From Arenicola marina (Eukaryota; Annelida; Polychaeta; Arenicolidae), in the NCBI GenBank assembly GCA_964019135.1, contig OZ025255.1, positions 42,686,811 through 42,750,810 of the forward strand: a stretch of 64,000 bases of DNA. Direction: 5' to 3'. The position numbers and the translations under genes are program-made. Below the pieces are notes generated by a model. It was not told the origin of the DNA and did no database searches. It saw only the letters and a list, made by a program, of their open reading frames with translations. Shown here in pieces: positions 37,936 to 64,000 of this stretch (position 1 is its first letter; the number at the start of each line of letters is the position of its first letter).

Positions 37936-38185
37936 AAGGAAAGGTCAGACGCGACCAGTTCACAACATCCGGCAGGACGAGCGGCGAGAGGCGGGCGATT
38001 CGAAATTTGTTGCGTGGAAAAAGGTAGACATGTCATGGAACATCGAGTCTGTTGAAAGATATCAACGTAGCTGCCGCGGAACATAACATCCATGAAGTCA
38101 AAAAATATTGCAGTTAGCGGTGAGTGTTGCTTAATTTGTTTGACAGAACTGCCCGTTGACGGCAACCCAAGGCGTTCAGGAGTAA

Positions 38186-41877: not shown

Positions 41878-42077
41878 NNNNNNNNNNNNNNNNNNNNNNN
41901 NNNNNNNNNNNNNNNNNNNNNNNNNNNNNNNNNNNNNNNNNNNNNNNNNNNNNNNNNNNNNNNNNNNNNNNNNNNNNNNNNNNNNNNNNNNNNNNNNNNN
42001 NNNNNNNNNNNNNNNNNNNNNNNNNNNNNNNNNNNNNNNNNNNNNNNNNNNNNNNNNNNNNNNNNNNNNNNNNNNNN
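41878..42077. other. Assembly gap, exactly 200 N
   Basis: A fixed-size gap directly at the left end of the 49-bp array. The next ythdc2 exon to the left may be hidden in it, or the scaffold join may be wrong. Confidence 1.
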
Positions 42078-43540
42078 TGACACGCGGCGTTGAGGGAAGA
42101 GGGGAGGGGGAGGGGTAATGACCTCCTGACACGTGGCGCTGGGGGGAGAGGGGAGGGGGAGGGGTAATGACCTGACACGTGGCGCTGAGGGGAGAGGGCA
42201 GGGGGAGGGGTAATGACACGTGGCGCTGAGGGGAGAGGGCAGGGGGAGGGGGTAGGGATCTCCTGACACGTGGCGCTGGGGGGAGAGGGGGAGGGGGAGG
42301 GGTAATGACCTCCTGACACGTGGCGCTGGGGGGAGAGGGGAGGGGGAGGGGTAATGACCTCCTGACACGTGGCGCTGGGGGGAGAGGGGAGGGGGAGGGG
42401 TAATGACACGTGGCGCTGGGGGGAGAGGGCAGGGGGAGGGGTAATGACGTCCTGACACGTGGCGCTGGGGGGAGAGGGGAGGGGGAGGGGTAATGACCTC
42501 CTGACACGTGGCGCTGGGGGGAGAGGGGAGGGGGAGGGGTAATGACCTCCTGACACGTGGCGCTGGGGGGAGAGGGGAGGGGGGAGGGGTAATGACCTCC
42601 TGACACGTGGCGCTGGGGGGAGAGGGGTGGGGGAGGGGTAATGACCTCCTGACACGTGGCGCTGGGGGGAGAGGGCAGGGGGAGGGGTGATGACCTCCTG
42701 ACACGTGGCGCTGGGGGGAGAGGGGAGGGGGAGGGGTAATGACCTCCTGACACGTGGCGCTGGGGGGAGAGGGGAGGGGGAGGGGTAATGACCTCCTGAC
42801 ACGCGGCGCTGAGGGGAGAGGGGAGGGGGAGGGGTAATGACCTCCTGACACGTGGCGCTGGGGGGAGAGGGGAGGGGGAGGGGTAATGACCTCCTGACAC
42901 GTGGCGCTGAGGGGAGAGGGCAGGGGGAGGAGTAATGACACGTGGCGCTGAGGGGAGAGGGCAGGGGGAGGGGGTAGTGATCTCCTGACACGTGGCGCTG
43001 GGGGGAGAGGGGAGGGGGAGGGGTAATGACCTCCTGACACGTGGCGCTGGGGGAAGAGGGCAGGGGGAGGGGTAATGACCTCCTGACACGTGGCGCTGGG
43101 GGGAGAGGGGAGGGGGAGGGGTAATGACTTCCTGACACGTGGCGCTGGGGGGAGAGGGGAGGGGGAGGGGTAATGACCTCCTGACACGTGGCGCTGAGGG
43201 GAGAGGGGAGGGGGGAGGGGTAATGACCTCCTGACACGTGGCGCTGAGGGGAGAGGGGAGGGGGAGGGGTAATGACCTGACACGTGGCGCTGGGGGAAGA
43301 GGGCAGGGGGAGGGGTAATGACCTCCTGACACGTGGCGCTGGGGGGAGAGGGGAGGGGGAGAGGTAATGACCTCCTGACAGGTGGCGCTGAGGGGAGAGG
43401 GCAGGGGGAGGGGTAATGACACGTGGCGCTGAGGGGAGAGGGCAGGGGGAGGGGTAATGACCTCCTGACACGTGGCCCTGGGGGAGGGGGGTAATGACCT
43501 CCTGACATGTGGCGCTGGGGGAAGAGGGGGCAGGGGCAGG
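42078..43540. repeat. 49-bp minisatellite, about 30 units, with acceptor-like element on the minus strand
   Basis: The plus-strand unit is TGACCTCCTGACACGTGGCG then CTGGGGGGAGAGGGGAGGGG and GAGGGGTAA, with shorter variants that lack CCTCCTGAC. On the minus strand, the sense strand of ythdc2, each unit is a strong pyrimidine tract (CCCCTCCCCTCTCCCCCCAG) followed by CGCCACGTGTCAGGAGG. The array lies in the intron that follows the ankyrin exon. The minus-strand open frames rich in P, S and L (up to 554 codons) are repeat artefacts crossing the gap. Confidence 0.93.
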
Positions 43541-43812: not shown

Positions 43813-44005
43813 ATGTGCGACTCCAGCAGCTCGACGACGTCGTCTCTCTCGAACTTGCGGGCCCAGTCGAGAGCGGCCCAGTCGTTGCTGGCCCGGAGGT
43901 GGACGTTGGCGCCCAGACTGAGCAGCTGTTCGGCCAAATCCGCAAAGCCCCGGCCACAGATCACCATCAGGGGCGTGGCGCTCGTCTCACTGTGGCTGTA
44001 GTCCA
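43813..44005 (-). CDS. ythdc2: ythdc2 exon: ankyrin-repeat insert
   Basis: This 193-bp exon has acceptor CCCCGTACAG (before 44005) and donor GTGAGT (after 43813). It begins with two bases that complete a valine codon with the preceding exon, and ends with AT in phase 2. Translation: VDYSHSETSATPLMVICGRG, then FADLAEQLLSLGANVHLR, then ALDWARKFERDDVVELLESH. The pattern SATPLM..GRG....AEQLLSLGANV....A...ALDWA is an ankyrin repeat pair. An ankyrin insert between the two helicase lobes is specific to YTHDC2 among DEAH helicases, and the residues closely match the vertebrate proteins as I remember them. In mammals this region binds the exonuclease XRN1. This is the last ythdc2 exon I can find on the left. 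Confidence 0.93.
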
Positions 44006-44196: not shown

Positions 44197-44323
44197 CGGT
44201 CACATTTTCACTGAGGATGTAGTGGAATATCTGGGCGCAGAGTTCCCGTTTGCCGGTGAGCCAGAGGTCTGTCAGTAGCTGGTCCATCTCCTTCACCAGC
44301 CAGGGCTCCAGGTCTTCTTTCTC
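44197..44323 (-). CDS. ythdc2: ythdc2 exon: segment before the ankyrin insert
   Basis: A 127-bp exon reading EKEDLEPWLVKEMDQLLTDL, then WLTGKRELCAQIFHYILSEN, then VT plus one base, followed by the donor GTGAGT. The LEPWLVKEMD...WL...F...LSENV pattern matches the conserved segment that leads into the ankyrin repeats in YTHDC2. The acceptor is either GGGGCAG before 44323 or CGGTCAG before 44332. Both keep frame, the latter adding V-G-Q. The phase-1 end fits the next exon exactly (G plus TG gives valine). Confidence 0.92.
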
Positions 44324-44959: not shown

Positions 44960-45114
44960 CTCAACCATTCTGCTCTCTATGTCGGGGCTATCTTCCTTCA
45001 CATCCACGGCGGCCATCCTCTTGGTGATGTCGTCCTCCGGGGGGTCCTCGGGGTCGTCCATTTCGGCCACCTCCCTGTTACACCAGTCCTCCAGCTCCTT
45101 CTGCTGGGTCTTCA
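44960..45114 (-). CDS. ythdc2: ythdc2 exon: acidic linker of the helicase
   Basis: A 155-bp exon. The acceptor is a long pyrimidine tract ending in TGTGTCCCGCAG, the donor is GTGTGT. It starts with TG, which completes a valine with the preceding exon, and encodes KTQQKELEDWCNREVAEMD, then DPEDPPEDDITKRMAAVDV, then KEDSPDIESRMVE, ending in phase 0. The sequence is charged and poorly conserved in the family, and position rather than motif places it: it joins exactly in phase on both sides. Its acceptor and first 75 or so bases have been copied about 20 times to the right (45115-49310). All decoy copies read KTQQRELE or KTQQRELD and VADMDD, whereas this copy reads KTQQKELE and VAEMDD, so the exon and the array have diverged. 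Confidence 0.9.
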
Positions 45115-48100
45115 CTGCGGGACACAGACAGAGAGACTAGATTGGGGGGTGGGGGGTGGGGGCAGACAGCGAGACTGAGGGGTAGGACACAGACACAGAG
45201 ACTAGACTGGGGGGTGGGGTGTGGGGGCAGACAGCGAGACTGGGGGGTAGGACACAGACACAGAGACTGGACTGGGGGGTGGGGGGCTCCTCGGGGTCGT
45301 CCATGTCGGCCACCTCCCTGTTACACCAGTCCTCCAGCTCCCTCTGCTGGGTCTTCACTGCGGGACACAGACAGAGAGACTAGACTGGGGGGTGGGGTGT
45401 GGGGGCAGACAGCGAGACTGGGGGGTAGGACACAGACACAGAGACTGGACTGGGGGGTTGGGGGGGTGGGGTCCTCAGGGTCGTCCATATCGGCCACCTC
45501 CCTGTTACACCAGTCATCCAGCTCCCTCTGCTGGGTCTTCACTGAGGGACACAGACAGAGAGTCTAGACTGGACGGTGGGGTGTGGGGGAAGACAGCGAG
45601 ACTGGGGGGTAGAACACAAGACAGAGAGACTAGACTGGGGGGTTGGGTGTGGGGGCAGACAGCGAGACTAGGGGGTAGGACACAGACACAGAGACTGGAC
45701 TGGGGGGGGCTCCTCGGGGTCGTCCATGTCGGCCACCTCCCTGTTACACCAGTCCTCCAGCTCCCTCTGCCGGGTCTTCACTGCGGGACACAGACAGAGA
45801 GACTAGACTGGGGGGTGGGGTGTGGGGGCAGACAGCGAGACTGGGGGGTAGGACACAGACACAGAGGCTGGACTGGGGGGTGGGGGGGGGTCTTCAGGGT
45901 CGTCCATATCGGCCACCTCCCTGTTACACCAGTCATCCAGCTCCCTCTGCTGGGTCTTCACTGAGGGACACAGACAGAGAGTCTAGACTGGACGGTGGGG
46001 TGTGGGGGAAGACAGCGAGACTGGGGGGTAGGACACAAGACAGAGAGACTAGACTGGGGGGTTGGGTGTGGGGGCAGACAGCGAGACTAGGGGGTAGGAC
46101 ACAGACACAGAGACTGGACTGGGGGGGGCTCCTCGGGGTCGTCCATGTCGGCCACCTCCCTGTTACACCAGTCCTCCAGCTCCCTCTGCTGGGTCTTCAC
46201 TGCGGGACACAGACAGAGAGACTAGACTGGGGGGTGGGGTGTGGGGGCAGACAGCGAGACTGGGGGGTAGGACACAGACACAGAGACTGGACTGGGGGGG
46301 GGTCCTCAGGGTCGTCCATATCGGCCACCTCCCTGTTACACCAGTCATGCAGCTCCCTCTGCTGGGTCTTCACTGAGCGACACAGACAGAGAGACTAGAT
46401 TGGACGGTGGGGTGTGGGGGCAGACAGCGAGACTGGGGGGTAGGACACAAGACAGAGAGACTAGACTGGGGGGTGGGGTGTGGGGGCAGACAGCGAGACT
46501 AGGGGGTAGGACACAGACACAGAGACTGGACTGGGGGGTGGGGGGGGGGGTCCTCAGGGTCGTCCATATCGGCCACCTCCCTGTTACACCAGTCATCCAG
46601 CTCCCTCTGCTGGGTCTTCACTGAGCGACACAGACAGAGAGTCTAGACTGGACGGTGGGGTGTGGGGGCAGACAGCGAGACTGGGGGGTAGGACACAAGA
46701 CAGAGAGACTAGACTGGGGGGTGGGGTGTGGGGGCAGACAGCGAGACTGGGGGGTAGGACACAGACAGAGAGACTGGACTGGGGGGTGGGGTGTGGGGGC
46801 AGACAGCGAGACTGGGGGGTAGGACACAGACACAGAGACTGGACTGGGGGGGGGGGGTCCTCGGGGTCGCCCATGTCAGCCACCTCCCTGTTACACCAGT
46901 CCTCCAGCTCCCTCTGCCGGGTCTTCACTGCGGGACACAGACAGAGAGACTAGACTGGGGGGTGGGGTGTGGGGGCAGACAGCGAGACTGGGGGGTAGGA
47001 CACAGACACAGAGGCTGGACTGGGGGGGGGTCCTCGGGGTCGCCCATGTCAGCCACCTCCCTGTTACACCAGTCCTCCAGCTCCCTCTGCTGGGTCTTCA
47101 CTGCGGGACACAGACAGAGAGACTAGACTGGGGGGTGGGGTGTGGGGGCAGACAGCGAGACTGGGGGGTAGGACACAGACACAGAGACTGGACTGGGGGG
47201 TTGGGGGGGTGGGGTCCTCAGGGTCGTCCATATCGGCCACCTCCCTGTTACACCAGTCATCCAGCTCCCTCTGCTGGGTCTTCACTGAGGGACACAGACA
47301 GAGAGTCTAGACTGGACGGTGGGGTGTGGGGGAAGACAGCGAGACTGGGGGGTAGAACACAAGACAGAGAGACTAGACTGGGGGGTTGGGTGTGGGGGCA
47401 GACAGCGAGACTAGGGGGTAGGACACAGACACAGAGACTGGACTGGGGGGGGCTCCTCGGGGTCGTCCATGTCGGCCACCTCCCTGTTACACCAGTCCTC
47501 CAGCTCCCTCTGCCGGGTCTTCACTGCGGGACACAGACAGAGAGACTAGACTGGGGGGTGGGGTGTGGGGGCAGACAGCGAGACTGGGGGGTAGGACACA
47601 GACACAGAGGCTGGACTGGGGGGTGGGGGGGGGTCTACAGGGTCGTCCATATCGGCCACCTCCCTGTTACACCAGTCATCCAGCTCCCTCTGCTGGGTCT
47701 TCACTGAGGGACACAGACAGAGAGTCTAGACTGGACGGTGGGGTGTGGGGGAAGACAGCGAGACTGGGGGGTAGGACACAAGACAGAGAGACTAGACTGG
47801 GGGGTTGGGTGTGGGGGCAGACAGCGAGACTAGGGGGTAGGACACAGACACAGAGACTGGACTGGGGGGGGCTCCTCGGGGTCGTCCATGTCGGCCACCT
47901 CCCTGTTACACCAGTCCTCCAGCTCCCTCTGCTGGGTCTTCACTGCGGGACACAGACAGAGAGACTAGACTGGGGGGTGGGGTGTGGGGGCAGACAGCGA
48001 GACTGGGGGGTAGGACACAGACACAGAGACTGGACTGGGGGGGGGTCCTCAGGGTCGTCCATATCGGCCACCTCCCTGTTACACCAGTCATCCAGCTCCC

Positions 48101-49310
48101 TCTGCTGGGTCTTCACTGAGCGACACAGACAGAGAGACTAGATTGGACGGTGGGGTGTGGGGGCAGACAGCGAGACTGGGGGGTAGGACACAAGACAGAG
48201 AGACTAGACTGGGGGGTGGGGTGTGGGGGCAGACAGCGAGACTGGGGGGTAGGACACAGACAGAGAGACTGGACTGGGGGGTGGGGTGTGGGGGCAGACA
48301 GCGAGACTGGGGGGTAGGACACAGACACAGAGACTGGACTGGGGGGGGGGGTCCTCGGGGTCGCCCATGTCAGCCACCTCCCTGTTACACCAGTCCTCCA
48401 GCTCCCTCTGCCGGGTCTTCACTGCGGGACACAGACAGAGAGACTAGACTGGGGGGTGGGGTGTGGGGGCAGACAGCGAGACTGGGGGGTAGGACACAGA
48501 CACAGAGGCTGGACTGGGGGGGGGTCCTCGGGGTCGCCCATGTCAGCCACCTCCCTGTTACACCAGTCCTCCAGCTCCCTCTGCCGGGTCTTCACTGCGG
48601 GACACAGACAGAGAGACTAGACTGGGGGGTGGGGTGTGGGGGCAGACAGCGAGACTGGGGGGTAGGACACAGACACAGAGGCTGGACTGGGGGGTTCCTC
48701 GGGGTCGCCCATGTCAGCCACCTCCCTGTTACACCAGTCCTCCAGCTCCCTCTGCTGGGTCTTCACTGCGGGACACAGACAGAGAGACTAGACTGGGGGG
48801 TGGGGTGTGGGGGCAGACAGCGAGACTGGAGGGTAGGACACAGACACAGAGACTGGACTGGGGGGTGGGGGGGTCCTCGGGGTCGCCCATGTCGGCCACC
48901 TCCCTGTTACACCAGTCCTCCAGCTCCCTCTGCTGGGTCTTCACTGCGGGACACAGACAGAGACACTAGACTGGGGGGGTGGGGTGTGGGGGCAGACAGC
49001 GAGACTGGGGGGTAGGGCACAGACACAGAGACTTGACTGGGAGGCGGGGGGTTCCTCGGGGTCGCCCATGTCAGCCACCTCCCTGTTACACCAGTCCTCC
49101 AGCTCCCTCTGCCGGGTCTTCACTGCGGGACACAGACAGAGAGACTAGACTGGGGGGTGGGGTGTGGGGGCAGACAGCGAGACTGGGGGGTAGGGCACAG
49201 ACACAGAGACTTGACTGGGAGGCGGGGGGTTCCTCGGGGTCACCCATGTCAGCCACCTCCCTGTTACACCAGTCCTCAAGCTCCCTCGGCCGGGTCTTCA
49301 CTGCGGGACA
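45115..49310 (-). repeat. Array of partial ythdc2 exons: 20 copies of a 3' splice site plus the first half of the linker exon
   Basis: Compound units of about 174-305 bp. On the minus strand each has several pyrimidine-rich blocks (CCCCCCAGTCTAGTCTCTCT, TGTCTGTGTCCCGCAG), then TGAAGACCCAGCAGAGGGAG and the following bases to GACGACCCCGAGGA, and then returns to intron-like CCCCCCAGTCC blocks. Copies of the acceptor lie near 45356, 45541, 45780, 45960, 46199, 46375, 46620, 46927, 47103, 47284, 47523, 47703, 47942, 48118, 48421, 48596, 48772, 48948, 49123 and 49297. A stretch of about 1.7 kb is itself duplicated (offset 1743 bp, for example 45820 against 47563). Confidence 0.93.
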
Positions 49311-49512
49311 CGCCACAATGTAAAGGGTCAAGGTAGAGAGGAGCCAAGTCTCCAGGAGAAAACCCCTATTATTTGCGAAACAACACGTTGGATGCTTGAG
49401 CTGGACTAGCATAGCACATATCACTTCAATGAAAGTTATAATAAATAGTATAAATAACTATGTCTCACAAGATATGAACATAGTTACAACATACTAGAAA
49501 AGTATGGCTCAC

Positions 49513-49565
49513 CTTTGTTGAGATCTTTCTTGAACTTATTCATCTGTTTATTGCTGTAGTTTGTA
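49513..49565 (-). CDS. ythdc2: ythdc2 exon: lysine-rich segment
   Basis: A 53-bp exon between TAATTACAG and GTGAGC. It contributes one base to a leucine codon started in the previous exon, then TNYSNKQMNKFKKDLNK, then one base of the next valine. The TNYSNKQM..FKK pattern corresponds to the lysine-rich segment after the EDIL motif of YTHDC2. It is too short to be seen by length alone. The identification rests on phase, splice sites and position between two clear exons. Confidence 0.88.
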
Positions 49566-49787: not shown

Positions 49788-49842
49788 AGTTTGAGGATAT
49801 CTTCCAAGAAAAACTCTTGAACTTCAAACAGCTTCCCCGGGA
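49788..49842 (-). CDS. ythdc2: ythdc2 exon: end of helicase lobe 1
   Basis: A 55-bp exon between TTTTCTTTTCAG and GTGAGT. Together with the G of the previous exon it encodes VPGKLFEVQEFFLEDILK and two bases of leucine. The G(K/R).FEV.E.FLEDIL pattern is the strongly conserved segment that ends the first RecA-like lobe in DEAH helicases of this subfamily. Confidence 0.92.
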
Positions 49843-49964: not shown

Positions 49965-50888
49965 GACTGACTCACTGACCGTGGGTGACGGGTGACTGAC
50001 TCACTGACCGTTGATGACGGGGGGTGACTCACTGACCGTTGATGACGGGGGGTGACTCACTGACCGTTGATGACGGGGGGTGCCTCACTGACCGTGGGTG
50101 ACGGGGGGTGACTCACTGACCGTTGATGACGGGGGGTGACTCACTGACCGTTGGTGACGGGTGACTGACTCACTGACCGTTGATGACGGGGGGTGACTCA
50201 CTGACCGTGGGTGACGGGTGACTGACTCACTGACCGTTGATGACGGGGGGTGACTCACTGACCGTGGGTGACGGGTGACTGACTCACTGACCGTTGATGA
50301 CGGGGGGTGACTCACTGACCGTTGATGACGGGGGGTGACTCACTGACCGTTGATGACGGGGGGTGCCTCACTGACCGTGGGTGACGGGGGGTGACTCACT
50401 GACCGTTGATGACGGGGGGTGACTCACTGACCGTTGGTGACGGGTGACTGACTCACTGACCGTTGATGACGGGTGACTGACTCACTGACCGTTGATGACG
50501 GGGGGTGACTCACTGACCGTTGATGACGGGTGACTGACTCACTGACCGTTGATGACGGGTGGTGACTCACTGACCGTTGATGACGGGGGGTGACTCACTG
50601 ACCGTTGATGACGGGTGACTGACTCACTGACCGTTGATGACGGGGGGTGACTCACTGACCGTTGATGACGGGTGACTGACTCACTGACCGTTGATGACGG
50701 GTGACTGACTCACTGACCGTTGATGACGGGGGGTGACTCACTGACCGTTGATGACGGGTGACTGACTCACTGACCGTTGAATGCGGGTGACTGACTCACT
50801 GACTGTTGGTGACGGGTGACTGACTCACTGACCGTTGATGACGGGGGGTGACTCACTGACCGTTGATGACGGGGGGTGACTCACTGAC
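49965..50888 (-). repeat. 28/29-bp minisatellite, about 32 units, copying a ythdc2 exon end and its 5' splice site
   Basis: On the minus strand each unit contains CCCGTCATCAACG followed by GTCAGTGAGTCAC. The first part is the last 13 bases of the exon ending at 50889 (coding P-V-I-N) and the second its donor. Two length variants alternate: CCGTTGATGACGGGGGGTGA and CCGTTGATGACGGGTGACTG on the plus strand, each followed by CTCACTGA. The intron thus carries about 32 extra copies of the GTCAGTGAG donor. Confidence 0.94.
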
Positions 50889-51045
50889 CGTTGATGACGG
50901 GGCAGCCGCCGTAGTAGTTGGAGAAGAGCTGGACGTTGAGGGCGGCACTCATGAGGACGACTTTGAGGTTCTTCTGTCGGGGCAGCAGATCCCTCAGCGC
51001 CGCCACCAGGAAGTCACTGAAGCGATCCCGCTCGTGGATCTCATC
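50889..51045 (-). CDS. ythdc2: ythdc2 exon: DEIH box and motif III
   Basis: A 157-bp exon with acceptor GACCCCTTCAG and donor GTCAGTGAG. It encodes DEIHERDRFSDFLVAALRD, then LLPRQKNLKVVLMSAALN, then VQLFSNYYGGCPVIN and one base. DEIH is helicase motif II (Walker B, Mg-ATP hydrolysis). SAAL occupies the place of motif III, which is SAT in most DEAH proteins; an SAA form is what I remember for YTHDC2. The end of this exon and its donor have been amplified into the 28/29-bp array directly downstream in the intron. Confidence 0.95.
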
Positions 51046-51346: not shown

Positions 51347-51449
51347 CACGATGACGTGTGTGACGGTTGTCATGGAGCTGTCTCCGCCCATCAGCGTCCG
51401 CAGCAGGACGCCATTGGTGCAGAACGTCAACAGGGTCTTGGGAGAAACT
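51347..51449 (-). CDS. ythdc2: ythdc2 exon: helicase motif Ib region
   Basis: A 103-bp exon between CTCCCGCACAG and GTACGT. The first base completes an arginine codon. It then encodes VSPKTLLTFCTNGVLLRT and LMGGDSSMTTVTHVIV, which runs directly into the DEIH exon. The T.FCT.GVLLR.L pattern is the conserved motif Ib region of DEAH-box helicases, involved in RNA contact. Phases fit on both sides. Confidence 0.94.
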
Positions 51450-51933: not shown

Positions 51934-52100
51934 CTGCTCTCCAGCCTGATCTGGTAGCCGACGGTCTGTCCGACCTTCTCGCCCCTCTCAGCCGCCACCC
52001 GCTCGGCCATGCTGAGGGCCGCCAGCCGCCGGGGCTGCGTGCAGAAGATACGGCACGGCCGGCCCTGGGCCTGGCAGTCGTCCAGGATCATCTGCGGCAC
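51934..52100 (-). CDS. ythdc2: ythdc2 exon: helicase motif Ia
   Basis: A 167-bp exon between GTGGCTCCAG and GTAAGG. It begins in phase 0 and encodes [19 protein letters not shown], then [19 protein letters not shown], then [17 protein letters not shown] plus two bases. TQPRR is motif Ia, and V(A)ERV..ERGE..G..VGY.IR is the DEAH-family core. In mammals YTHDC2 is a 3'-to-5' RNA helicase that binds m6A RNA through a C-terminal YTH domain and works with MEIOC at meiotic entry. Whether the mollusc-like protein does the same is inference. Confidence 0.96.
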
Positions 52101-52225: not shown

Positions 52226-52419
52226 TGTTTAAATTGAAATGTTGGTGTTTTAGGCCGCTTTTGTGCACATGAAGACTAAATTGGGCCAAGGAACCTCGCG
52301 GGACGATGAAGGATGCAGGGATAAAAAAAAGGCCCCATATAAGGTGCCCGGGCCCGGATTCGAACCCAGGACCTATAGATCTGCGGTCTAGTGCGCTAAC
52401 CACTACACCAGAGAGCCAT
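52214..52419 (-). mobile_element. tRNA-derived SINE inserted in a ythdc2 intron
   Basis: On the minus strand the head GGCTCTCTGGTGTAGTGGTT (A box GTGTAGTGGTT) is followed by AGCGCACTAGACCGCAGAT and the B box GGTTCGAATCC, making a near-complete tRNA shape of about 72 bases. A non-tRNA body (CCTTATATGGGGCC and further) ends in GGCCTAAAACACCAACATTT. The element is in the same orientation as the gene and its head starts only about 15 bp after the 5' splice site of the Walker A exon. It shares its tail with the fragment at 1711-1745. Confidence 0.85.
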
Positions 52420-52434
52420 GACAAACTGACGTAC

Positions 52435-52640
52435 TTGGGTCGTTTTTCCCGAGCCTGTCTCCCCGGCCACCAAGACGACCTTGTTCTCATTGATGACCTT
52501 GGTGATCTCATCCTTCATCATGTAGACGGGTAGCGTCTGACGGAAGGATGCCAGGTCCGAGGGGCCCCTAGGGGGCGGCACCTGCGGGACGCCGTTGTTA
52601 AGGCGACCGGTCGTCGTCTTATTAAAGTCACGCGCCATGC
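52435..52640 (-). CDS. ythdc2: ythdc2 exon: pre-helicase linker and Walker A
   Basis: A 206-bp exon with acceptor CGTGGTTTCAG (rather few pyrimidines) and donor GTACGT. Two leading bases GC need one base from the previous exon. It then encodes MARDFNKTTTGRLNNGVPQ, then PRGPSDLASFRQTLPVY, then MKDEITKVINENKVVLVA, then GETGSGKTTQ. The last is helicase motif I (Walker A, ATP binding). The GRLNNG.PQ.P..RG....FRQ.LPV pattern before it is the family-specific linker of YTHDC2. The N-terminal R3H domain and start codon are not in the window. The methionine near the exon start is internal and I do not take it as the initiator, because the upstream linker residues seem to be present in the 74-bp array. 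Confidence 0.96.
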
Positions 52641-52825: not shown

Positions 52826-55800
52826 CCTATCTGTCTGTCTGTGTGTCTGTCCGTATGTACCTTCATTGTACTGACTGCGCTCGGTGCGTGGCTGCAGGTC
52901 CTGTCTGTGTGTCTGTCCGTATGTACCTTCATTGTACTGACTGCGCTCGGTGCGTGGCTGCAGGTCCTGTCTGTCTGTCTGTGTGTCTGTCCGTATGTAC
53001 CTTCATTGTACTGACTGCGCTCGGTGCGTGGCTGAAGGTCCTGTCTGTCTGTCTGTGTGTCTGACCGTATGTACCTTCATTGTACTGACTGCGCTCGGTG
53101 CGTGGCTGCAGGTCCTGTCTGTCTGTCTGTGTGTCTGTCCGTATGTACCTTCATTGTACTGACTGCGCTCGGTGCGTGGCTGCAGGTCCTGTCTGTCTGT
53201 CTGTGTGTCTGACCGTATGTACCTTCATTGTACTGACTGCGCTCGGTGCGTGGCTGCAGGTCCTGTCTGTCTGTCTGTGTGTCTGTCCGTATGTACCTTC
53301 ATTGTACTGACTGCGCACGGTGCGTGGCTGCAGGTCCTGTCTGTCTGTCTGTGTGTCTGACCGTATGTACCTTCATTGTACTGACTGCGCTCGGTGCGTG
53401 GCTGCAGGTCCTGTCTGTCTGTCTGTGTGTCTGACCGTATGTACCTTCATTGTACTGACTGCGCTCGGTGCGTGGCTGCAGGTCCTGTCTGTCTGTCTGT
53501 GTGTCTGTCCGTATGTACCTTCATTGTACTGACTGCGCTCGGTGCGTGACTGCAGGTCCTGTCTGTCTGTCTGTGTGTCTGTCCGTATGTACCTTCATTG
53601 TACTGACTGCGCTCGGTGCGTGACTGCAGGTCCTGTCTGTCTGTCTGTGTGTCTGTCCGTATGTACCTTCATTGTACTGACTGCGCTCGGTGCGTGGCTG
53701 AAGGTCCTGTCTGTCTGTCTGTGTGTCTGTCCGTATGTACCTTCATTGTACTGACTGCGCTCGGTGCGTGGCTGCAGGTCCTGTCTGTCTGTCTGTGTGT
53801 CTGACCGTATGTACCTTCATTGTACTGACTGCGCTCGGTGCGTGGCTGCAGGTCCTGTCTGTCTGTCTGTGTGTCTGTCCGTATGTACCTTCATTGTACT
53901 GACTGCGCTCGGTGCGTGGCTGCAGGTCCTGTCTGTCTGTCTGTGTGTCTGACCGTATGTACCTTCATTGTACTGACTGCGCTCGGTGCGTGGCTGCAGG
54001 TCCTGTCTGTCTGTCTGTGTGTCTGTCCGTATGTACCTTCATTGTACTGACTGCGCTCGGTGCGTGGCTGCAGGTTCCGTCTGTCTGTCTGTGTGTCTGT
54101 CCGTATGTACCTTCATTGTACTGACTGCGCTCGGTGCGTGGCTGCAGGTCCTGTCTGTGTGTCTGTGTGTCTGTCCGTATGTACCTTCATTGTACTGACT
54201 GCGCTCGGTGCGTGGCTGAAGGTCCTGTCTGTCTGTCTGTGTGTCTGTCCGTATGTACCTTCATTGTACTGACTGCGCTCGGTGCGTGGCTGCAGGTCCT
54301 GTCTGTCTGTCTGTGTGTCTGTCCGTACGTACCTTCATTGTACTGACTGCGCTCGGTGCGTGGCTGCAGGTCCTGTCTCTCTGTCTGTGTGTCTGTCCGT
54401 ATGTACCATCATTGTACTGACTGCGCTCGGTGCGTGGCTGCAGGTCCTGTCTGTCTGTCTGTGTGTCTGTCCGTATGTACCTTCATTGTACTGACTGCGC
54501 TCGGTGCGTGGCTGCAGGTCCTGTCTGTCTGTCTGTGTGTCTGTCCGTACGTACCTTCATTGTACTGACTGCGCTCGGTGCGTGGCTGAAGGTCCTGTCT
54601 GTCTGTCTGTGTGTCTGTCCGTATGTACCTTCATTGTACTGACTGCGCTCGGTGCGTGGCTGCAGGTCCTGTCTGTCTGTCTGTGTGTCTGTCCCTATGT
54701 ACCTTCATTGTACTGACTGCGCTCGGTGCGTGGCTGCAGGTCCTGTCTGTCTGTCTGTGTCTGCCCGTATGTACCTTCATTGTACTGACTGCGCTCGGTG
54801 CGTGGCTGCAGGTCCTGTCTGTCTGTCTGTGTGTCTGTCCGTACGTACCTTCATTGTACTGACTGCGCTCGGTGCGTGGCTGAAGGTCCTGTCTGTCTGT
54901 CTGTGTGTCTGTCCGTATGTACCTTCATTGTACTGACTGCGCTCGGTGCGTGGCTGCAGGTCCTGTCTGTCTGTCTGTGTGTCTGTCCGTATGTACCTTC
55001 ATTGTACTGACTGCGCTCGGTGCGTGGCTGCAGGTCCTGTCTGTCTGTCTGTGTCTGCCCGTATGTACCTTCATTGTACTGACTGCGCTCGGTGCGTGGC
55101 TGCAGGTCCTGTCTGTCTGTCTGTGTGTCTGTCCGTATGTACCTTCATTGTACTGACTGCGCTCGGTGCGTGGCTGAAGGTCCTGTCTGTCTGTCTGTCT
55201 GTGTGTGTGTCTGACCGTATGTACCTTCATTGTACTGACTGCGCTCGGTGCGTGGCTGCAGGTCCTGTCTGTCTGTCTGTGTGTCTGTCCGTATGTACCT
55301 TCATTGTACTGACTGCGCTCGGTGCGTGGCTGAAGGTCCTGTCTGTCTGTCTGTGTGTCTGACCGTATGTACCTTCATTGTACTGACTGCGCTCGGTGCG
55401 TGGCTGAAGGTCCTGTCTGTCTGTCTGTGTGTCTGTCCGTACGTACCTTCATTGTACTGACTGCGCTCGGTGCGTGGCTGAAGGTCCTGTCTGTCTGTCT
55501 GCGTGTCTGTCCGTATGTACCTTCATTGTACTGACTGTGCTCGGTGCGTGGCTGCAGGTCCTGTCTGTCTGTCTGTGTGTCTGTCCGTATGTACCTTCAT
55601 TGTACTGACTGCGCTCGGTGCGTGGCTGAAGGTCCTGTCTGTCTGTCTGTGTGTCTGTCCGTATGTACCTTCATTGTACTGACTGCGCTCGGTGCGTGGC
55701 TGCAGGTCCTGTCTGTCTGTCTGTGTGTCTGACCGTATGTACCTTCATTGTACTGACTGCGCACGGTGCGTGGCTGCAGGTCCTGTCTGTCTGTCTGTGT

Positions 55801-58800
55801 GTCTGACCGTATGTACCTTCATTGTACTGACTGCGCTCGGTGCGTGGCTGCAGGTCCTGTCTGTCTGTCTATGTGTCTGACCGTATGTACCTTCATTGTA
55901 CTGACTGCGCTCGGTGCGTGGCTGCAGGTCCTGTCTGTCTGTCTGTGTGTCTGACCGTATGTACCTTCATTGTACTGACTGCGCTCGGTGCGTGGCTGAA
56001 GGTCCTGTCTGTCTGTCTGCGTGTCTGTCCGTATGTACCTTCATTGTACTGACTGTGCTCGGTGCGTGGCTGCAGGTCCTGTCTGTCTGTGTGTGTGTCT
56101 GTCCGTATGTACCTTCATTGTACTGACTGCGCTCGGTGCGTGGCTGCAGGTCCTGTCTGTCTGTCTGTGTGTCTGACCGTATGTACCTTCATTGTACTGA
56201 CTGCGCTCGGTGCGTGGCTGAAGGTCCTGTCTGTCTGTGTGTGTGTCTGTCCGTATGTACCTTCATTGTACTGACTGCGCTCGGTGCGTGGCTGCAGGTC
56301 CTGTCTGTCTGTCTGTGTGTCTGACCGTATGTACCTTCATTGTACTGACTGCGCTCGGTGCGTGGCTGCAGGTCCTGTCTGTCTGTCTGTGTGTCTGACC
56401 GTATGTACCTTCATTGTACTGACTGCGCTCGGTGCGTGGCTGCAGGTCCTGTCTGTCTGTCTGTGTGTCTGTCCGTATGTACCTTCATTGTACTGACTGC
56501 GCTCGGTGCGTGGCTGCAGGTCCCGTCTGTCTGTCTGTGTGTCTGACCGTATGTACCTTCATTGTACTGACTGCGCTCGGTGCGTGGCTGCAGGTCCTGT
56601 CTGTCTGTCTGTGTGTCTGTCCGTATGTACCTTCATTGTACTGACTGCGCTCGGTGCGTGGCTGAAGGTCCTGTCTGTCTGTCTGTGTGTCTGTCCGTAT
56701 GTACCTTCATTGTACTGACTGCGCTCGGTGCGTGGCTGCAGGTCCTGTCTGTCTGTCTGTGTGTCTGTCCGTATGTACCTTCATTGTACTGACTGCGCTC
56801 GGTGCGTGGCTGCAGGTCCTGTCTGTCTGTCTGTGTGTCTGTCCGTATGTATCTTCATTGTACTGACTGCGCACGGTGCGTGGCTGCAGGTCCTGTCTGT
56901 CTGTCTGTGTGTCTGTCCGTATGTATCTTCATTGTACTGACTGCGCTCGGTGCGTGGCTGCAGGTCCTGTCTGTGTGTCTGTGTGTCTGTCCGTATGTAT
57001 CTTCATTGTACTGACTGCGCTCGGTGCGTGGCTGCAGGTCCTGTCTGTCTGTCTGTGTGTCTGTCCGTATGTATCTTCATTGTACTGACTGCGCTCGGTG
57101 CGTGGCTGCAGGTCCTGTCTGTCTGTCTGTGTGTCTGTCCGTATGTATCTTCATTGTACTGACTGCGCTCGGTGCGTGGCTGCAGGTCCTGTCTGTGTGT
57201 CTGTGTGTCTGTCCGTATGTACCTTCATTGTACTGACTGCGCTCGGTGCGTGGCTGCAGGTCCTGTCTGTCTGTCTGTGTGTCTGTCCGTATGTACCTTC
57301 ATTGTACTGACTGCGCACGGTGCGTGGCTGCAGGTCCTGTCTGTCTGTCTGTGTCTGTCCGTATGTACCTTCATTGTACTGACTGCGCTCGGTGCGTGGC
57401 TGCAGGTCCTGTCTGTCTGTCTGTGTGTCTGTCCGTATGTACCTTCATTGTACTGACTGCGCACGGTGCGTGGCTGCAGGTCCTGTCTGTCTGTCTGTGT
57501 CTGTCCGTATGTACCTTCATTGTACTGACTGCGCTCGGTGCGTGACTGCAGGTCCTGTCTGTCTGTCTGTGTGTCTGTCCGTATGTACCTTCATTGTACT
57601 GACTGCGCTCGGTGCGTGGCTGAAGGTCCTGTCTGTCTGTCTGTGTGTCTGTCCGTATGTACCTTCATTGTACTGACTGCGCTCGGTGCGTGGCTGCAGG
57701 TCCTGTCTGTCTGTCTGTGTGTCTGACCGTATGTACCTTCATTGTACTGACTGCGCACGGTGCGTGGCTGCAGGTCCTGTCTGTCTGTCTGCGTGTCTGT
57801 CCGTATGTACCTTCATTGTACTGACTGTGCTCGGTGCGTGGCTGCAGGTCCTGTCTGTCTGTCTGTGTGTCTGACCGTATGTACCTTCATTGTACTGACT
57901 GCGCTCGGTGCGTGGCTGCAGGTCCTGTCTGTCTGTCTGTGTGTCTGACCGTATGTACCTTCATTGTACTGACTGCGCTCGGTGCGTGGCTGAAGGTCCT
58001 GTCTGTCTGTCTGCGTGTCTGTCCGTATGTACCTTCATTGTACTGACTGTGCTCGGTGCGTGGCTGCAGGTCCTGTCTGTCTGTGTGTGTGTCTGTCCGT
58101 ATGTACCTTCATTGTACTGACTGCGCTCGGTGCGTGGCTGCAGGTCCTGTCTGTCTGTCTGTGTGTCTGACCGTATGTACCTTCATTGTACTGACTGCGC
58201 TCGGTGCGTGGCTGAAGGTCCTGTCTGTCTGTGTGTGTGTCTGTCCGTATGTACCTTCATTGTACTGACTGCGCTCGGTGCGTGGCTGCAGGTCCTGTCT
58301 GTCTGTCTGTGTGTCTGACCGTATGTACCTTCATTGTACTGACTGCGCTCGGTGCGTGGCTGCAGGTCCTGTCTGTCTGTCTGTGTGTCTGACCGTATGT
58401 ACCTTCATTGTACTGACTGCGCTCGGTGCGTGGCTGCAGGTCCTGTCTGTCTGTCTGTGTGTCTGTCCGTATGTACCTTCATTGTACTGACTGCGCTCGG
58501 TGCGTGGCTGCAGGTCCCGTCTGTCTGTCTGTGTGTCTGACCGTATGTACCTTCATTGTACTGACTGCGCTCGGTGCGTGGCTGCAGGTCCTGTCTGTCT
58601 GTCTGTGTGTCTGTCCGTATGTACCTTCATTGTACTGACTGCGCTCGGTGCGTGGCTGAAGGTCCTGTCTGTCTGTCTGTGTGTCTGTCCGTATGTACCT
58701 TCATTGTACTGACTGCGCTCGGTGCGTGGCTGCAGGTCCTGTCTGTCTGTCTGTGTGTCTGTCCGTATGTACCTTCATTGTACTGACTGCGCTCGGTGCG

Positions 58801-61800
58801 TGGCTGCAGGTCCTGTCTGTCTGTCTGTGTGTCTGTCCGTATGTATCTTCATTGTACTGACTGCGCACGGTGCGTGGCTGCAGGTCCTGTCTGTCTGTCT
58901 GTGTGTCTGTCCGTATGTATCTTCATTGTACTGACTGCGCTCGGTGCGTGGCTGCAGGTCCTGTCTGTGTGTCTGTGTGTCTGTCCGTATGTATCTTCAT
59001 TGTACTGACTGCGCTCGGTGCGTGGCTGCAGGTCCTGTCTGTCTGTCTGTGTGTCTGTCCGTATGTATCTTCATTGTACTGACTGCGCTCGGTGCGTGGC
59101 TGCAGGTCCTGTCTGTCTGTCTGTGTGTCTGTCCGTATGTATCTTCATTGTACTGACTGCGCTCGGTGCGTGGCTGCAGGTCCTGTCTGTGTGTCTGTGT
59201 GTCTGTCCGTATGTACCTTCATTGTACTGACTGCGCTCGGTGCGTGGCTGCAGGTCCTGTCTGTCTGTCTGTGTGTCTGTCCGTATGTACCTTCATTGTA
59301 CTGACTGCGCACGGTGCGTGGCTGCAGGTCCTGTCTGTCTGTCTGTGTCTGTCCGTATGTACCTTCATTGTACTGACTGCGCTCGGTGCGTGGCTGCAGG
59401 TCCTGTCTGTCTGTCTGTGTGTCTGTCCGTATGTACCTTCATTGTACTGACTGCGCACGGTGCGTGGCTGCAGGTCCTGTCTGTCTGTCTGTGTCTGTCC
59501 GTATGTACCTTCATTGTACTGACTGCGCTCGGTGCGTGACTGCAGGTCCTGTCTGTCTGTCTGTGTGTCTGTCCGTATGTACCTTCATTGTACTGACTGC
59601 GCTCGGTGCGTGACTGCAGGTCCTGTCTGTCTGTCTGTGTGTCTGTCCGTATGTACCTTCATTGTACTGACTGCGCACGGTGCGTGGCTGCAGGTCCTGT
59701 CTGTCTGTCTGTGTGTCTGTCCGTATGTACCTTCATTGTACTGACTGCGCTCGGTGCGTGGCTGCAGGTCCTGTCTGTCTGTCTGTGTGTCTGTCCGTAT
59801 GTACCTTCATTGTACTGACTGCGCACGGTGCGTGGCTGCAGGTCCTGTCTGTCTGTCTGTGTCTGTCCGTATGTACCTTCATTGTACTGACTGCGCTCGG
59901 TGCGTGGCTGCAGGTCCTGTCTGTCTGTCTGTATGTACCTTCATTGTACTGACTGCGCACGGTGCGTGGCTGCAGGTCCTGTCTGTCTGTCTGTGTCTGT
60001 CCGTATGTACCTTCATTGTACTGACTGCGCTCGGTGCGTGGCTGAAGGTCCTGTCTGTCTGTCTGTGTGTCTGTCCGTATGTACCTTCATTGTACTGACT
60101 GCGCTCGGTGCGTGGCTGCAGGTCCTGTCTGTCTGTCTGTGTCTGTCCGTATGTACCTTCATTGTACTGACTGCGCTCGGTGCGTGGCTGCAGGTCCTGT
60201 CTGTCTGTCTGTCTGTGTGTGTGTCTGTCCGTATGTACCTTCATTGTACTGACTGCGCTCGGTGCGTGGCTGCAGGTCCTGTCTGTCTGTCTGTGTGTCT
60301 GTCCGTATGTACCTTCATTGTACTGACTGCGCACGGTGTGTGGCTGCAGGTCCTGTCTGTCTGTCTGTGTCTGTCCGTATGTACCTTCATTGTACTGACT
60401 GCGCTCGGTGCGTGGCTGCAGGTCCTGTCTGTCTGTCTGTGTCTGTCCGTATGTACCTTCATTGTACTGACTGCGCTCGGTGCGTGGCTGCAGGTCCTGT
60501 CTGTCTGTCTGTCTGTGTGTGTGTCTGTCCGTATGTACCTTCATTGTACTGACTGCGCTCGGTGCGTGGCTGCAGGTCCTGTCTGTCTGTCTGTGTGTCT
60601 GTCCGTATGTACCTTCATTGTACTGACTGCGATCGGTGCGTGGCTGCAGGTCCTGTCCGTCTGTCTGTGTGTCTGTCCGTATGTACCTTCATTGTACTGA
60701 CTGCGCTCGGTGTGTGGCTGCAGGTCCTGTCTGTCTGTCTGTGTCTGCCCGTATGTACCTTCATTGTACTGACTGCGCTCGGTGCGTGGCTGCAGGTCCT
60801 GTCTGTCTGTCTGTGTGTCTGTCCGTATGTACCTTCATTGTACTGACTGCGCTCGGTGCGTGGCTGCAGGTCCTGTCTGTCTGTCTGTCTGTGTCTGTCC
60901 GTATGTACCTTCATTGTACTGACTGCGCTCGGTGCGTGGCTGCAGGTCCTGTCTGTCTGTCTGTCTGTCTGTGTGTCTGTCCGTATGTACCTTCATTGTA
61001 CTGACTGCGCTCGGTGCGTGACTGCAGGTCCTGTCTGTCTGTCTGTGTCTGTCCGTATGTACCTTCATTGTACTGACTGCGCTCGGTGCGTGACTGCAGG
61101 TCCTGTCTGTCTGTCTGTGTGTCTGACCGTATGTACCTTCATTGTACTGACTGCGCTCGGTGCGTGGCTGCAGGTCCTGTCTGTCTGTCTGTGTGTCTGT
61201 CCGTATGTACCTTCATTGTACTGACTGCGCTCGGTGCGTGGCTGCAGGTCCTGTCTGTCTGTCTGTCTGTGTCTGTCCGTATGTACCTTCATTGTACTGA
61301 CTGCGCTCGGTGCGTGGCTGCAGGTCCTGTCTGTCTGTCTGTCTGTCTGTGTGTCTGTCCGTATGTACCTTCATTGTACTGACTGCGCTCGGTGCGTGAC
61401 TGCAGGTCCTGTCTGTCTGTCTGTGTCTGTCCGTATGTACCTTCATTGTACTGACTGCGCTCGGTGCGTGGCTGCAGGTCCTGTCTGTCTGTCTGTGTCT
61501 GTCCGTATGTACCTTCATTGTACTGACTGCGCTCGGTGCGTGGCTGCAGGTCCTGTCTGTCTGTCTGTCTGTGTGTGTGTCTGTCCGTATGTACCTTCAT
61601 TGTACTGACTGCGCTCGGTGCGTGGCTGCAGGTCCTGTCTGTCTGTCTGTGTGTCTGTCCGTATGTACCTTCATTGTACTGACTGCGATCGGTGCGTGGC
61701 TGCAGGTCCTGTCCGTCTGTCTGTGTGTCTGTCCGTATGTACCTTCATTGTACTGACTGCGCTCGGTGTGTGGCTGCAGGTCCTGTCTGTCTGTCTGTGT

Positions 61801-64000
61801 CTGCCCGTATGTACCTTCATTGTACTGACTGCGCTCGGTGCGTGGCTGCAGGTCCTGTCTGTCTGTCTGTGTGTCTGTCCGTATGTACCTTCATTGTACT
61901 GACTGCGCTCGGTGCGTGGCTGCAGGTCCTGTCTGTCTGTCTGTCTGTGTCTGTCCGTATGTACCTTCATTGTACTGACTGCGCTCGGTGCGTGGCTGCA
62001 GGTCCTGTCTGTCTGTCTGTCTGTCTGTGTGTCTGTCCGTATGTACCTTCATTGTACTGACTGCGCTCGGTGCGTGACTGCAGGTCCTGTCTGTCTGTCT
62101 GTGTCTGTCCGTATGTACCTTCATTGTACTGACTGCGCTCGGTGCGTGACTGCAGGTCCTGTCTGTCTGTCTGTGTGTCTGACCGTATGTACCTTCATTG
62201 TACTGACTGCGCACGGTGCGTGGCTGCAGGTCCTGTCTGTCTGTCTGTGTGTCTGTCCGTATGTACCTTCATTGTACTGACTGCGCACGGTGCGTGGCTG
62301 CAGGTCCTGTCTGTCTGTCTGTGTGTCTGACCGTATGTACCTTCATTGTACTGACTGCGCACGGTGCGTGGCTGCAGGTCCTGTCTCTCTGTCTGTGTGT
62401 CTGTCCGTATGTACCTTCATTGTACTGACTGCGCTCGGTGCGTGGCTGCAGGTCCTGTCTGTCTGTCTGTGTGTCTGACCGTATGTACCTTCATTGTACT
62501 GACTGCGCTCGGTGCGTGGCTGCAGGTCCTGTCTGTCTGTCTGTGTGTCTGACCGTATGTACCTTCATTGTACTGACTGCGCTCGGTGCGTGACTGCAGG
62601 TCCTGTCTGTCTGTCTGTGTGTCTGACCGTATGTACCTTCATTGTACTGACTGCGATCGGTGTGTGGCTGCAGGTCCTGTCTGTCTGTGTGTGTGTCTGT
62701 CCGTATGTACCTTCATTGTACTAACTGCGCTCGGTGCGTGGCTGTAGGTCCTGTCTGTGTGTCTGTCCGTATGTACCTTCATTGTACTGACTGCGCTCGG
62801 TGCGTGGCTGCAGGTCCTGTCTGTCTGTCTGTGTGTCTGTCCGTATGTACCTTCATTGTACTGACTGCGCTCGGTGCGTGGCTGCAGGTCCTGTCTGTCT
62901 GTGTGTCTGTCCGTATGTACCTTCATTGTACTGACTGCGCTCGGTGCGTGGCTGCAGGTTCTGTCTGTCTGTCTGTGTGTCTGTCCGTATGTACCTTCAT
63001 TGTACTGACTGCGCTCGGTGCGTGACTGCAGGTCCTGTCTGTCTGTCTGTGTGTCTGTCCGTATGTACCTTCATTGTACTGACTGCGCTCGGTGCGTGGC
63101 TGCAGGTCCTGTCTGTCTGTCTGTGTGTCTGACCGTATGTACCTTCATTGTACTGACTGCGCTCGGTGCGTGGCTGCAGGTCCTGTCTCTCTGTCTGTGT
63201 GTCTGTCCGTATGTACCTTCATTGTACTGACTGCGCTCGGTGCGTGGCTGCAGGTCCTGTCTGTCTGTGTGTGTGTCTGACCGTATGTACCTTCATTGTA
63301 CTGACTGCGCTCGGTGCGTGGCTGCAGGTCCTGTCTCTCTGTCTGTGTGTCTGTCCGTATGTACCTTCATTGTACTGACTGCGCTCGGTGCGTGGCTGCA
63401 GGTCCTGTCTCTCTGTCTGTGTGTCTGTCCGTATGTACCTTCATTGTACTGACTGCGCTCGGTGCGTGGCTGCAGGTCCTGTCTGTCTGTCTGTGTGTCT
63501 GACCGTATGTACCTTCATTGTACTGACTGCGCTCGGTGCGTGGCTGCAGGTCCTGTCTGTCTGTCTGTGTGTCTGACCGTATGTACCTTCATTGTACTGA
63601 CTGCGCACGGTGCGTGGCTGCAGGTCCTATCTGTCTGTCTGTGTGTCTGACCGTATGTACCTTCATTGTACTGACTGCGCACGGTGCGTGGCTGCAGGTC
63701 CTATCTGTCTGTCTGTGTGTCTGTCCGTATGTACCTTCATTGTACTGACTGCGCTCGGTGCGTGACTGCAGGTCCTGTCTGTCTGTCTGTGTGTCTGACC
63801 GTATGTACCTTCATTGTACTGACTGCGCTCGGTGCGTGGCTGCAGGTCCTGTCTGTCTGTCTGTGTGTCTGACCGTATGTACCTTCATTGTACTGACTGC
63901 GCTCGGTGCGTGGCTGCAGGTCCTGTCTGTCTGTCTGTGTGTCTGACCGTATGTACCTTCATTGTACTGACTGCGCTCGGTGTGTGGCTGCAGGTCCTGT
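52826..64000 (-). repeat. 74-bp minisatellite, about 151 units, over 11 kb and open at the right edge; each unit appears to carry a ythdc2 exon end and 5' splice site
   Basis: The plus-strand unit is CTGTCTGTCTGTCTGTGTGT, then CTGTCCGTATGTACCTTCAT, then TGTACTGACTGCGCTCGGTG, then CGTGGCTGCAGGTC. Variants lose or gain CTGT steps (68-90 bp). On the minus strand each unit reads CTGCAGCCACGCACCGAGCG, CAGTCAGTACAATGAAG, then the donor-like GTACATACGG and an ACAGACAG tract. In frame this is LQPRTERSQYNEG. It resembles the YTHDC2 linker (LLPKTERG in the vertebrate protein as I remember it) that stands directly before the Walker A exon, and GAAG followed by GT gives the one base that exon needs. Overlapping plus-strand frames such as SVCLSVCTFIVLTALGAWLQV are artefacts. 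Confidence 0.93.

What the first reader, a model, noticed from the sequence alone, without database searches (positions are those of the whole stretch)
52826..64000. An 11-kb, 74-bp minisatellite appears to be an amplified exon end plus 5' splice site of ythdc2
Seen: on the minus strand each unit carries LQPRTERSQYNE followed by one base and GTACATACGG. The next ythdc2 exon (52640 leftwards) begins with two bases, so joining GAAG to GC ATG gives NEGMARDFNKTTTGRLNNG in frame. Known: vertebrate YTHDC2 has a similar LLPKTERG segment shortly before SKTSGRLNNG (from memory). Inference: the true preceding exon lies beyond the right edge and its 3' end and donor were copied about 150 times into the intron, so the pre-mRNA carries over a hundred copies of this donor. 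Each unit also has ACAGACAG and CTGCAG acceptor-like steps, so units might act as 31- or 40-nt micro-exons.
Basis: partly seen in the sequence, partly recalled or inferred. Interest (0 to 1): 0.92.

Follow-up and report, generated by a model that had tools for sequence, protein, structure and literature searches.

The report
Exon-edge minisatellite with repeated splice sites
In a marine worm's gene, the last 40 letters of an exon and the splice signal after it have been copied about 170 times in a row into the next intron, so the cell must pick the one right splice site among a long run of near-identical copies.

Summary
Beyond the window's right edge lies the missing ythdc2 exon (extended coordinates 65694-65507), ending ..NKERQDLQPRTERSQYNE(G)|gtacatacgg. 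The 74-bp unit is its last 40 nt plus 34 nt of intron: 172 units with the real one, 161 with GT. Joined exons give an open YTHDC2 frame, and tubeworm orthologues share the peptide across the junction. The host is an annelid, probably near Phyllodocida, not a mollusc. Micro-exons are unsupported. Only unit 1's donor keeps the frame.

It is not isolated: 9 of 23 ythdc2 exons tested have an edge in a tandem array (5-172 copies), as do two other helicase genes. Of 71 edges, 10 of 36 donors but 1-2 of 35 acceptors are arrayed. About 45% of random positions there are arrayed too, so edges are not preferred seeds; four chaperonin genes showed none. The structures match amphioxus "mirages", here in another phylum with many more copies than the globin cases. 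Best reading: inert by-products of minisatellite growth, tolerated because splicing uses the exon-proximal site. Splicing was not tested.

The parts
52826..64000 (-). 74-bp exon-edge minisatellite in the intron after exon E4 (continues to 65546 in extended coordinates, L009:1546); unit = last 40 nt of exon E4 + first 34 nt of intron, 172 units with the real one
52435..52640 (-). ythdc2 exon E5 (MARDFNKTTTGRLNNG..GETGSGKTTQ), acceptor to which E4 must be joined
51934..52100 (-). ythdc2 exon E6 (VPQMILDDC..)
51347..51449 (-). ythdc2 exon E7 (VSPKTLLTFCTNGVLLRTLM..)
50889..51045 (-). ythdc2 exon E8 (DEIHERDRFSDFL..CPVIN)
49968..50902 (-). second exon-edge array: 28/29-bp units with E8 exon end and donor ATCAACG|GTCAGTG, 32 near-copies with the real one, all 32 with GT
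49788..49842 (-). ythdc2 exon E9 (PGKLFEVQEFFLEDILKL)
49513..49565 (-). ythdc2 exon E10 (TNYSNKQMNKFKKDLNK)
45114..49314 (-). third exon-edge array: units of 171-307 bp carrying the acceptor and first ~75 nt of exon E11, 21 near-copies with the real one, all 21 with AG
44960..45114 (-). ythdc2 exon E11 (VKTQQKELEDWCNREVAEMDDPEDPP..)
44197..44323 (-). ythdc2 exon E12 (EKEDLEPWLVKEMDQLL..)
43813..44005 (-). ythdc2 exon E13, ankyrin (VDYSHSETSATPLMV..)

Best explanation
A short tandem duplication once spanned the 3' edge of ythdc2 exon E4: 40 nt of exon, the donor and 34 nt of intron. Like the many other minisatellites of this repeat-rich annelid genome it then expanded, by slippage and unequal exchange, into a 12.7-kb array that now fills most of the intron. 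The copies are not exons: they have no acceptor with a pyrimidine tract, and the exon part drifts freely. The gene should still work because the spliceosome pairs the real E4 acceptor with the nearest donor, unit 1, and removes the rest as intron. Shown: origin, position, copy number in the assembly, frame and stop consequences, lack of coding constraint, recurrence at other exon edges. Inferred: the expansion mechanism and the choice of the proximal donor. Not shown: any RNA.
For: The exon with its own acceptor sits at the array's 5' end. The joined 563-aa frame is open; R3H and DEAD match over Pfam's cut-offs, ankyrin below it. Orthologues keep the peptide and length at this junction. 105 of 172 units have an exon part identical to the real exon; there are 51 distinct unit types, with excess identity at lags of 27 and 14 units, as block duplications by unequal exchange would give. 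Extending E4 to unit 2 shifts the frame, and to any of units 3-172 meets a stop at nt 330 (172 of 172 units examined). The same holds for E8 copies (31 of 31 distal donors read into a stop) and E11 copies (20 of 20). Exon-part variants are 2 synonymous:10 nonsynonymous, possible 24:93. Amphioxus globin and Adh3 mirages were reported not to disturb regular splicing (PMC3087553, passages).
Against: No transcript was seen. The E4 donor is weak by a recalled vertebrate matrix (1.31; the other 11 donors 1.36-7.43), and five units carry a better-scoring version (5.12), so proximal choice is not guaranteed. In E8 and E11 every near-copy found keeps GT or AG, and 54 of 55 do at the exon of L050. That could hint at constraint, although youth explains it too, and the near-copy filter favours intact copies. 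The exon part is somewhat less variable than the intron part (mean heterozygosity 0.019 against 0.032, p=0.034).
Confidence: 0.82

Rival explanations
1. Regulated or stochastic splicing: distal donors are used at a measurable rate, giving extended E4 forms with a frameshift or premature stop that are destroyed by nonsense-mediated decay, so array length tunes YTHDC2 output.
For: 161 of 172 units keep GT with nearly the same 40 nt upstream; five units have a donor scoring higher than the real one; distal use predicts a stop or frameshift.
Against: No RNA evidence. Amphioxus mirages reportedly leave splicing intact. GT is lost in 11 of 172 units without sign of maintenance.
Confidence: 0.1
2. 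U1 sponge: the many donor copies bind U1 snRNP and protect the long intron from premature cleavage and polyadenylation, which would make donor-side arrays tolerable or useful.
For: Donor edges are arrayed more often than acceptor edges (10 of 36 against 1 or 2 of 35; Fisher p 0.006 or 0.024, post hoc).
Against: The bias rests on few, non-independent edges. The donor is weak and is broken in 11 units. Other arrays of the window have not been tied to a donor. The idea comes from recalled work on telescripting, not from a call.
Confidence: 0.04
3. Micro-exons: units are included as 31- or 40-nt exons through the ACAGACAG or CTGCAG steps.
For: AG dinucleotides are present in the units.
Against: 30% pyrimidine before these AGs against 35-80% for the 12 real acceptors; no coding constraint; 40 and 31 are not multiples of three; RNA of two units has no unusual fold (z 0.94).
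Confidence: 0.02
4. Assembly artefact: the array is inflated or invented by the assembler.
For: Long near-identical arrays are hard to assemble; the window has two 200-N gaps elsewhere.
Against: 51 distinct unit types in structured order, no N in the array, and the same kind of structure at ten further edges on three contigs. Copy number may still be wrong.
Confidence: 0.03

Closest known systems
Amphioxus 'mirages' (minisatellite-like tandem duplications of exon-intron boundaries: Adh3, globin BflGb6/BflGb9, PGBD5, TnC), PMC3087553 and PMC3902484
   Same: Tandem units span an exon-intron boundary on the donor or acceptor side; many but not all copies keep AG/GT; concerted evolution inside the array; not claimed to be used as exons (passages read).
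   Different: Annelid, not chordate; 172, 32, 21 and 55 copies at single edges here, against 6 and 3 units in the two BflGb6 haplotypes and 2-7 in PGBD5; 9 of 23 exons of one gene affected. The Adh3 copy number was not seen: the original paper is not held.
Intron gain by tandem duplication of AGGT-bearing exon (Rogers model; potato RdRp, PMC4974935)
   Same: A tandem duplication carries an exon edge with its splice site.
   Different: No new intron is shown here; copies lie inside an intron and show no sign of exon use. Seen as search listing and start of abstract, and as the mention in PMC3087553.
Human internal tandem repeats at exon-intron boundaries in segmental duplications (PMC2812944)
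   Same: Minisatellite growth at exon edges can alter gene structure (passages).
   Different: On average 30-bp units repeated 4 times there; coding changes and novel introns are the stress.
Earthworm metallothionein intron minisatellites and exon-4 duplications (PMC12783039)
   Same: Annelid genes with minisatellite introns; exon-4 duplications absent from the transcript (passages).
   Different: The passages seen do not describe units made of an exon edge plus splice site.

Membership tests
mirage (exon-intron boundary minisatellite) | tandem units span an exon-intron boundary | tested here: met
   E4 donor 172, E8 donor 32, E11 acceptor 21 near-copies of a 28-nt junction
mirage (exon-intron boundary minisatellite) | the real boundary lies at one end of the array | tested here: met
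   E4 exon at the 5' end of its array; E8 at 50889; E11 at 45114
mirage (exon-intron boundary minisatellite) | many but not all copies carry the splice dinucleotide | tested here: met
   161 of 172 GT for E4; in E8 32 of 32 and E11 21 of 21 near-copies carry it
mirage (exon-intron boundary minisatellite) | regular splicing is not disturbed | not testable with these tools
   no RNA data at hand
mirage (exon-intron boundary minisatellite) | allelic or somatic length instability | not testable with these tools
   one assembled sequence only
mirage (exon-intron boundary minisatellite) | units at the array edge escape homogenisation | tested here: inconclusive
   exon-part identity to the real exon is 0.994 in the first 20 units, not lower than 0.988-0.993 in the rest, though unit 2 is divergent
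intron gain by tandem duplication | a new intron between the duplicates, absent in relatives | not tested
   only protein sequences of relatives were at hand
YTHDC2 gene | R3H + DEAH helicase with ankyrin insert + HA2/OB + YTH | tested here: inconclusive
   R3H and DEAD over cut-off, Ank_2 below cut-off; many of the named best hits are annotated YTHDC2; downstream exon hits on C8 to 42617181; YTH domain not looked for

The most novel reading that the evidence does not exclude
In this annelid, exon edges of conserved genes are repeatedly amplified into long intronic arrays, and donor-side arrays are tolerated far better than acceptor-side ones. The arrays are thus a natural, in-genome assay showing that donor choice is set by position (nearest to the defined exon) even against over a hundred near-identical competitors, and this has driven intron growth.
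Probability: 0.3. Interest if true: 0.8.

Novelty: new member of a known kind. Interest (0 to 1): 0.62.

Why it matters
Each array sets up to 172 copies of one splice site, with nearly identical exon context, against each other; they differ mainly in distance from the real exon. RNA-seq from this animal would test directly how splice sites are chosen by position rather than sequence. The case also carries a phenomenon reported for amphioxus into an annelid, with many more copies than the globin and PGBD5 cases. It suggests a route for intron growth: from E2 to E13, three exon-edge arrays make up about 17.9 of 24.2 kb (coordinates). Gene predictors may be misled by such arrays.

Tried and rejected
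Mollusc origin: rejected by YTHDC2 (Lamellibrachia and Ridgeia 69%, Patella 62%; candidates limited by length and number) and by COX1 from contig C762 (Pilargis 92%, other annelids to 91%, gastropods up to 86% in the 120 listed). Species not named.

Enrichment of arrays at exon edges: looked for and not found. 43-45% of 998 random positions in the region and 46% of 880 flank positions have near-copies, against 3 of 24 and 7 of 43 edges.

A subtelomeric cause: among 22 loci, not all independent, repeat fraction falls with distance from the contig end (rho -0.54, p 0.01). But one gene 1.65 Mb from an end has 1% (L052), and eight blind 1.5-kb samples gave 1.0, 0.99, 0.17, 1.0 near ends and 0.04, 0.85, 1.0, 0.17 inside, so this is left open.

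Genome-wide uniformity: rejected. In the fetched parts of four chaperonin genes (20 exon hits) I saw no edge array (by eye from the array list; not scored with the 28-mer test; one array starts 50 bp after the last hit of L054).

RNA structure in the unit: none. Rfam over the window: 0 matches at gathering scores. Own-genome DNA search with the unit found 8 weak matches elsewhere (70-94% identity); the tool skips common words, so this says little. A first donor-score script used the wrong offset for the array units and was redone; a stop test that skipped units lacking the exact anchor was redone on all 172.

Rows dropped before the edge count: of 30 loci, L019, L020, L041 (no intron edge at the hit), L025 (same as E13), L027, L028, L031, L032 (near-identical copies); L046's acceptor could not be placed. 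Two ythdc2 exon hits without a locus were tested afterwards on L050; one (42617181) was not tested, nor were hits of other genes without a locus. L030 has a weak 71% array at its acceptor that the test does not count. The L036 acceptor is arrayed by eye with a 3-nt indel and is missed by the gapless test. Further arrays in L046, L047 and L033 look like exon ends by translation but were not counted.
Full report
OBSERVATION. TRF finds a 74-bp array from 52901 to the window edge, 149.9 copies. The window is C8:42686811-42750810 of an 867-Mb assembly. I fetched the right flank. The array ends at 65546 in extended coordinates, 170.9 copies by TRF. An anchor allowing four substitutions gives 172 units, 139 of 171 spacings exactly 74 bp.

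THE MISSING EXON. Directly beyond the array, at 65694-65507 (L009:1694-1507), lies an exon with acceptor ctgtggcttcag| and the end ACAATGAAG|gtacatacgg. It reads KGANRYLTV...NKERQDLQPRTERSQYNE(G). The unit is therefore its last 40 nt plus 34 nt of intron. Joined with the exons on either side the frame is open: 12 exons give 563 aa with R3H and DEAD matches over Pfam's cut-offs and an ankyrin match below it. Exons upstream of E2 were not sought. Lamellibrachia and Ridgeia YTHDC2 have QDLQPRTDRGQYSDGMGRELNRTTTGRLNNG where the host has QDLQPRTERSQYNEGMARDFNKTTTGRLNNG. Further ythdc2 exon hits lie on C8 from 42644536 down to 42617181 (query recalled), so the gene spans at least 137 kb. No exon was found for query residues about 66-121.

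HOST. YTHDC2 is closest to annelid tubeworms (69%, against 62% for the limpet Patella). COX1 of contig C762, read with table 5, is closest to annelids, Pilargis wolfi (92%) and other Phyllodocida first.

WHAT THE COPIES ARE. GT is intact in 161 of 172 units (10 G-to-A, 1 G-to-T at +1). 105 of 172 exon parts equal the real exon. Distinct variants in the exon part are 2 synonymous and 10 nonsynonymous, with 24 and 93 possible changes, so there is no sign of coding constraint. There are 51 unit types with identity peaks at lags 27 and 14, which fits block duplication. RNA of two units does not fold better than shuffles. Extending E4 to donor 2 shifts the frame, and to any of units 3-172 meets a stop at nt 330.

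NOT ISOLATED. In the same gene the E8 donor recurs 32 times (mostly 28/29 bp apart, all GT) and the E11 acceptor 21 times (171-307 bp apart, all AG), each array starting at the real exon edge. Every distal E8 donor (31 of 31) and every distal E11 acceptor (20 of 20) gives a stop. Of eleven further ythdc2 exons tested, six have arrayed donors: L021 8, L024 22, L043 5, L023 5 and L026 29 copies, counted within about 3-kb loci, so lower bounds, and the exon at C8:42642533-42642435 with 55 copies in 10 kb, 54 with GT. So 9 of 23 ythdc2 exons are affected. Two other helicase-like genes show it: L036 on C17 (donor 29 copies; acceptor also arrayed, with an indel) and L038 on C19 (donor 22).

CONTROLS. 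Arrays are everywhere: TRF arrays cover 64% of the window. 43-45% of 998 random positions in 164 kb and 46% of 880 flank positions have near-copies. Edges at 3 of 24 and 7 of 43 are below that, so exon edges are not favoured seeds; selection may remove many. Parts of four chaperonin genes show none in 20 exon hits. Over 71 edges, donors are arrayed in 10 of 36, acceptors in 1 of 35 by the strict test or 2 with L036 (Fisher p 0.006 or 0.024; before the two added exons 9 of 34 against 1 or 2 of 33, p 0.013 or 0.045). This was noticed after the fact, and edges of one gene are not independent.

MECHANISM. Most likely a minisatellite seeded across an exon edge and expanded by unequal exchange. Copies on the donor side lack a good acceptor and copies on the acceptor side seem, by reading, to lack a good donor (not scored). 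Exon definition would then recognise only the exon with both ends, and the nearest site is used (inference). Distal use would be lost to stops. The three edge arrays account for about 17.9 of the 24.2 kb from E2 to E13, so intron growth is their main visible effect.

KNOWN KIND. Tandem repeats spanning exon-intron boundaries are called mirages in amphioxus (passages of PMC3087553 and PMC3902484). The globin BflGb6 haplotypes have 6 and 3 units and PGBD5 2-7; Adh3 units of 10-72 bp are mentioned, copy number not seen. The authors conclude that regular splicing is not disturbed. I found no report in annelids among the listed results of nine searches of the held open-access library; several lists were capped (for example 12 of 163 and 15 of 328 papers shown), only named annelids or polychaetes, and most subscription papers are not held. 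I file it as a new member of that kind, with many more copies than the globin and PGBD5 cases and in another phylum.

Noticed in passing
window 31462-37947: 39-bp array, about 164 copies, whose minus-strand unit looks like an acceptor (TTTCTTTACGCCCTGTGTTGTTGCAG|TATTTGAAT); I recognised no exon at its ends in the sequence read.
   Followed up: partly
window 15706-17742: 51-bp array whose plus-strand unit contains TTGTGTTTGTTGTTCACAG|AGCCCTGGC, acceptor-like; no gene assigned.
   Followed up: no
window 42078-43491: 49-bp array with CTCAG|CGCCACGTGTCAGG units that runs into a 200-N gap (41878-42077), so its far end is unknown.
   Followed up: no
window about 52330-52420, minus strand: tRNA-like stretch (TGGTGTAGTGGTTAGCGC..GGTTCGAATCC) in the E5-E6 intron, possibly a tRNA-derived SINE; ARAGORN and Rfam report nothing.
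   Followed up: partly
C8:42644536-42730622 (between E13 and the next exon hit): Up to about 86 kb of intron, array-rich in the part inside the window; an exon for query residues about 66-121 was not found and may lie in a gap.
   Followed up: partly
L036 (C17:1680859-1684098): One helicase exon has arrays on both edges: 31-bp donor units and 37-bp acceptor units.
   Followed up: partly
window 52826-64000 and on to 65546 (array units): Five units carry a donor variant AAG|GTACGT that scores higher than the real donor by a recalled matrix (5.12 against 1.31).
   Followed up: no
L055-L062: In eight blind 1.5-kb samples four are 99-100% tandem repeat and one 85%: the genome itself seems unusually repeat-rich.
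   Followed up: no
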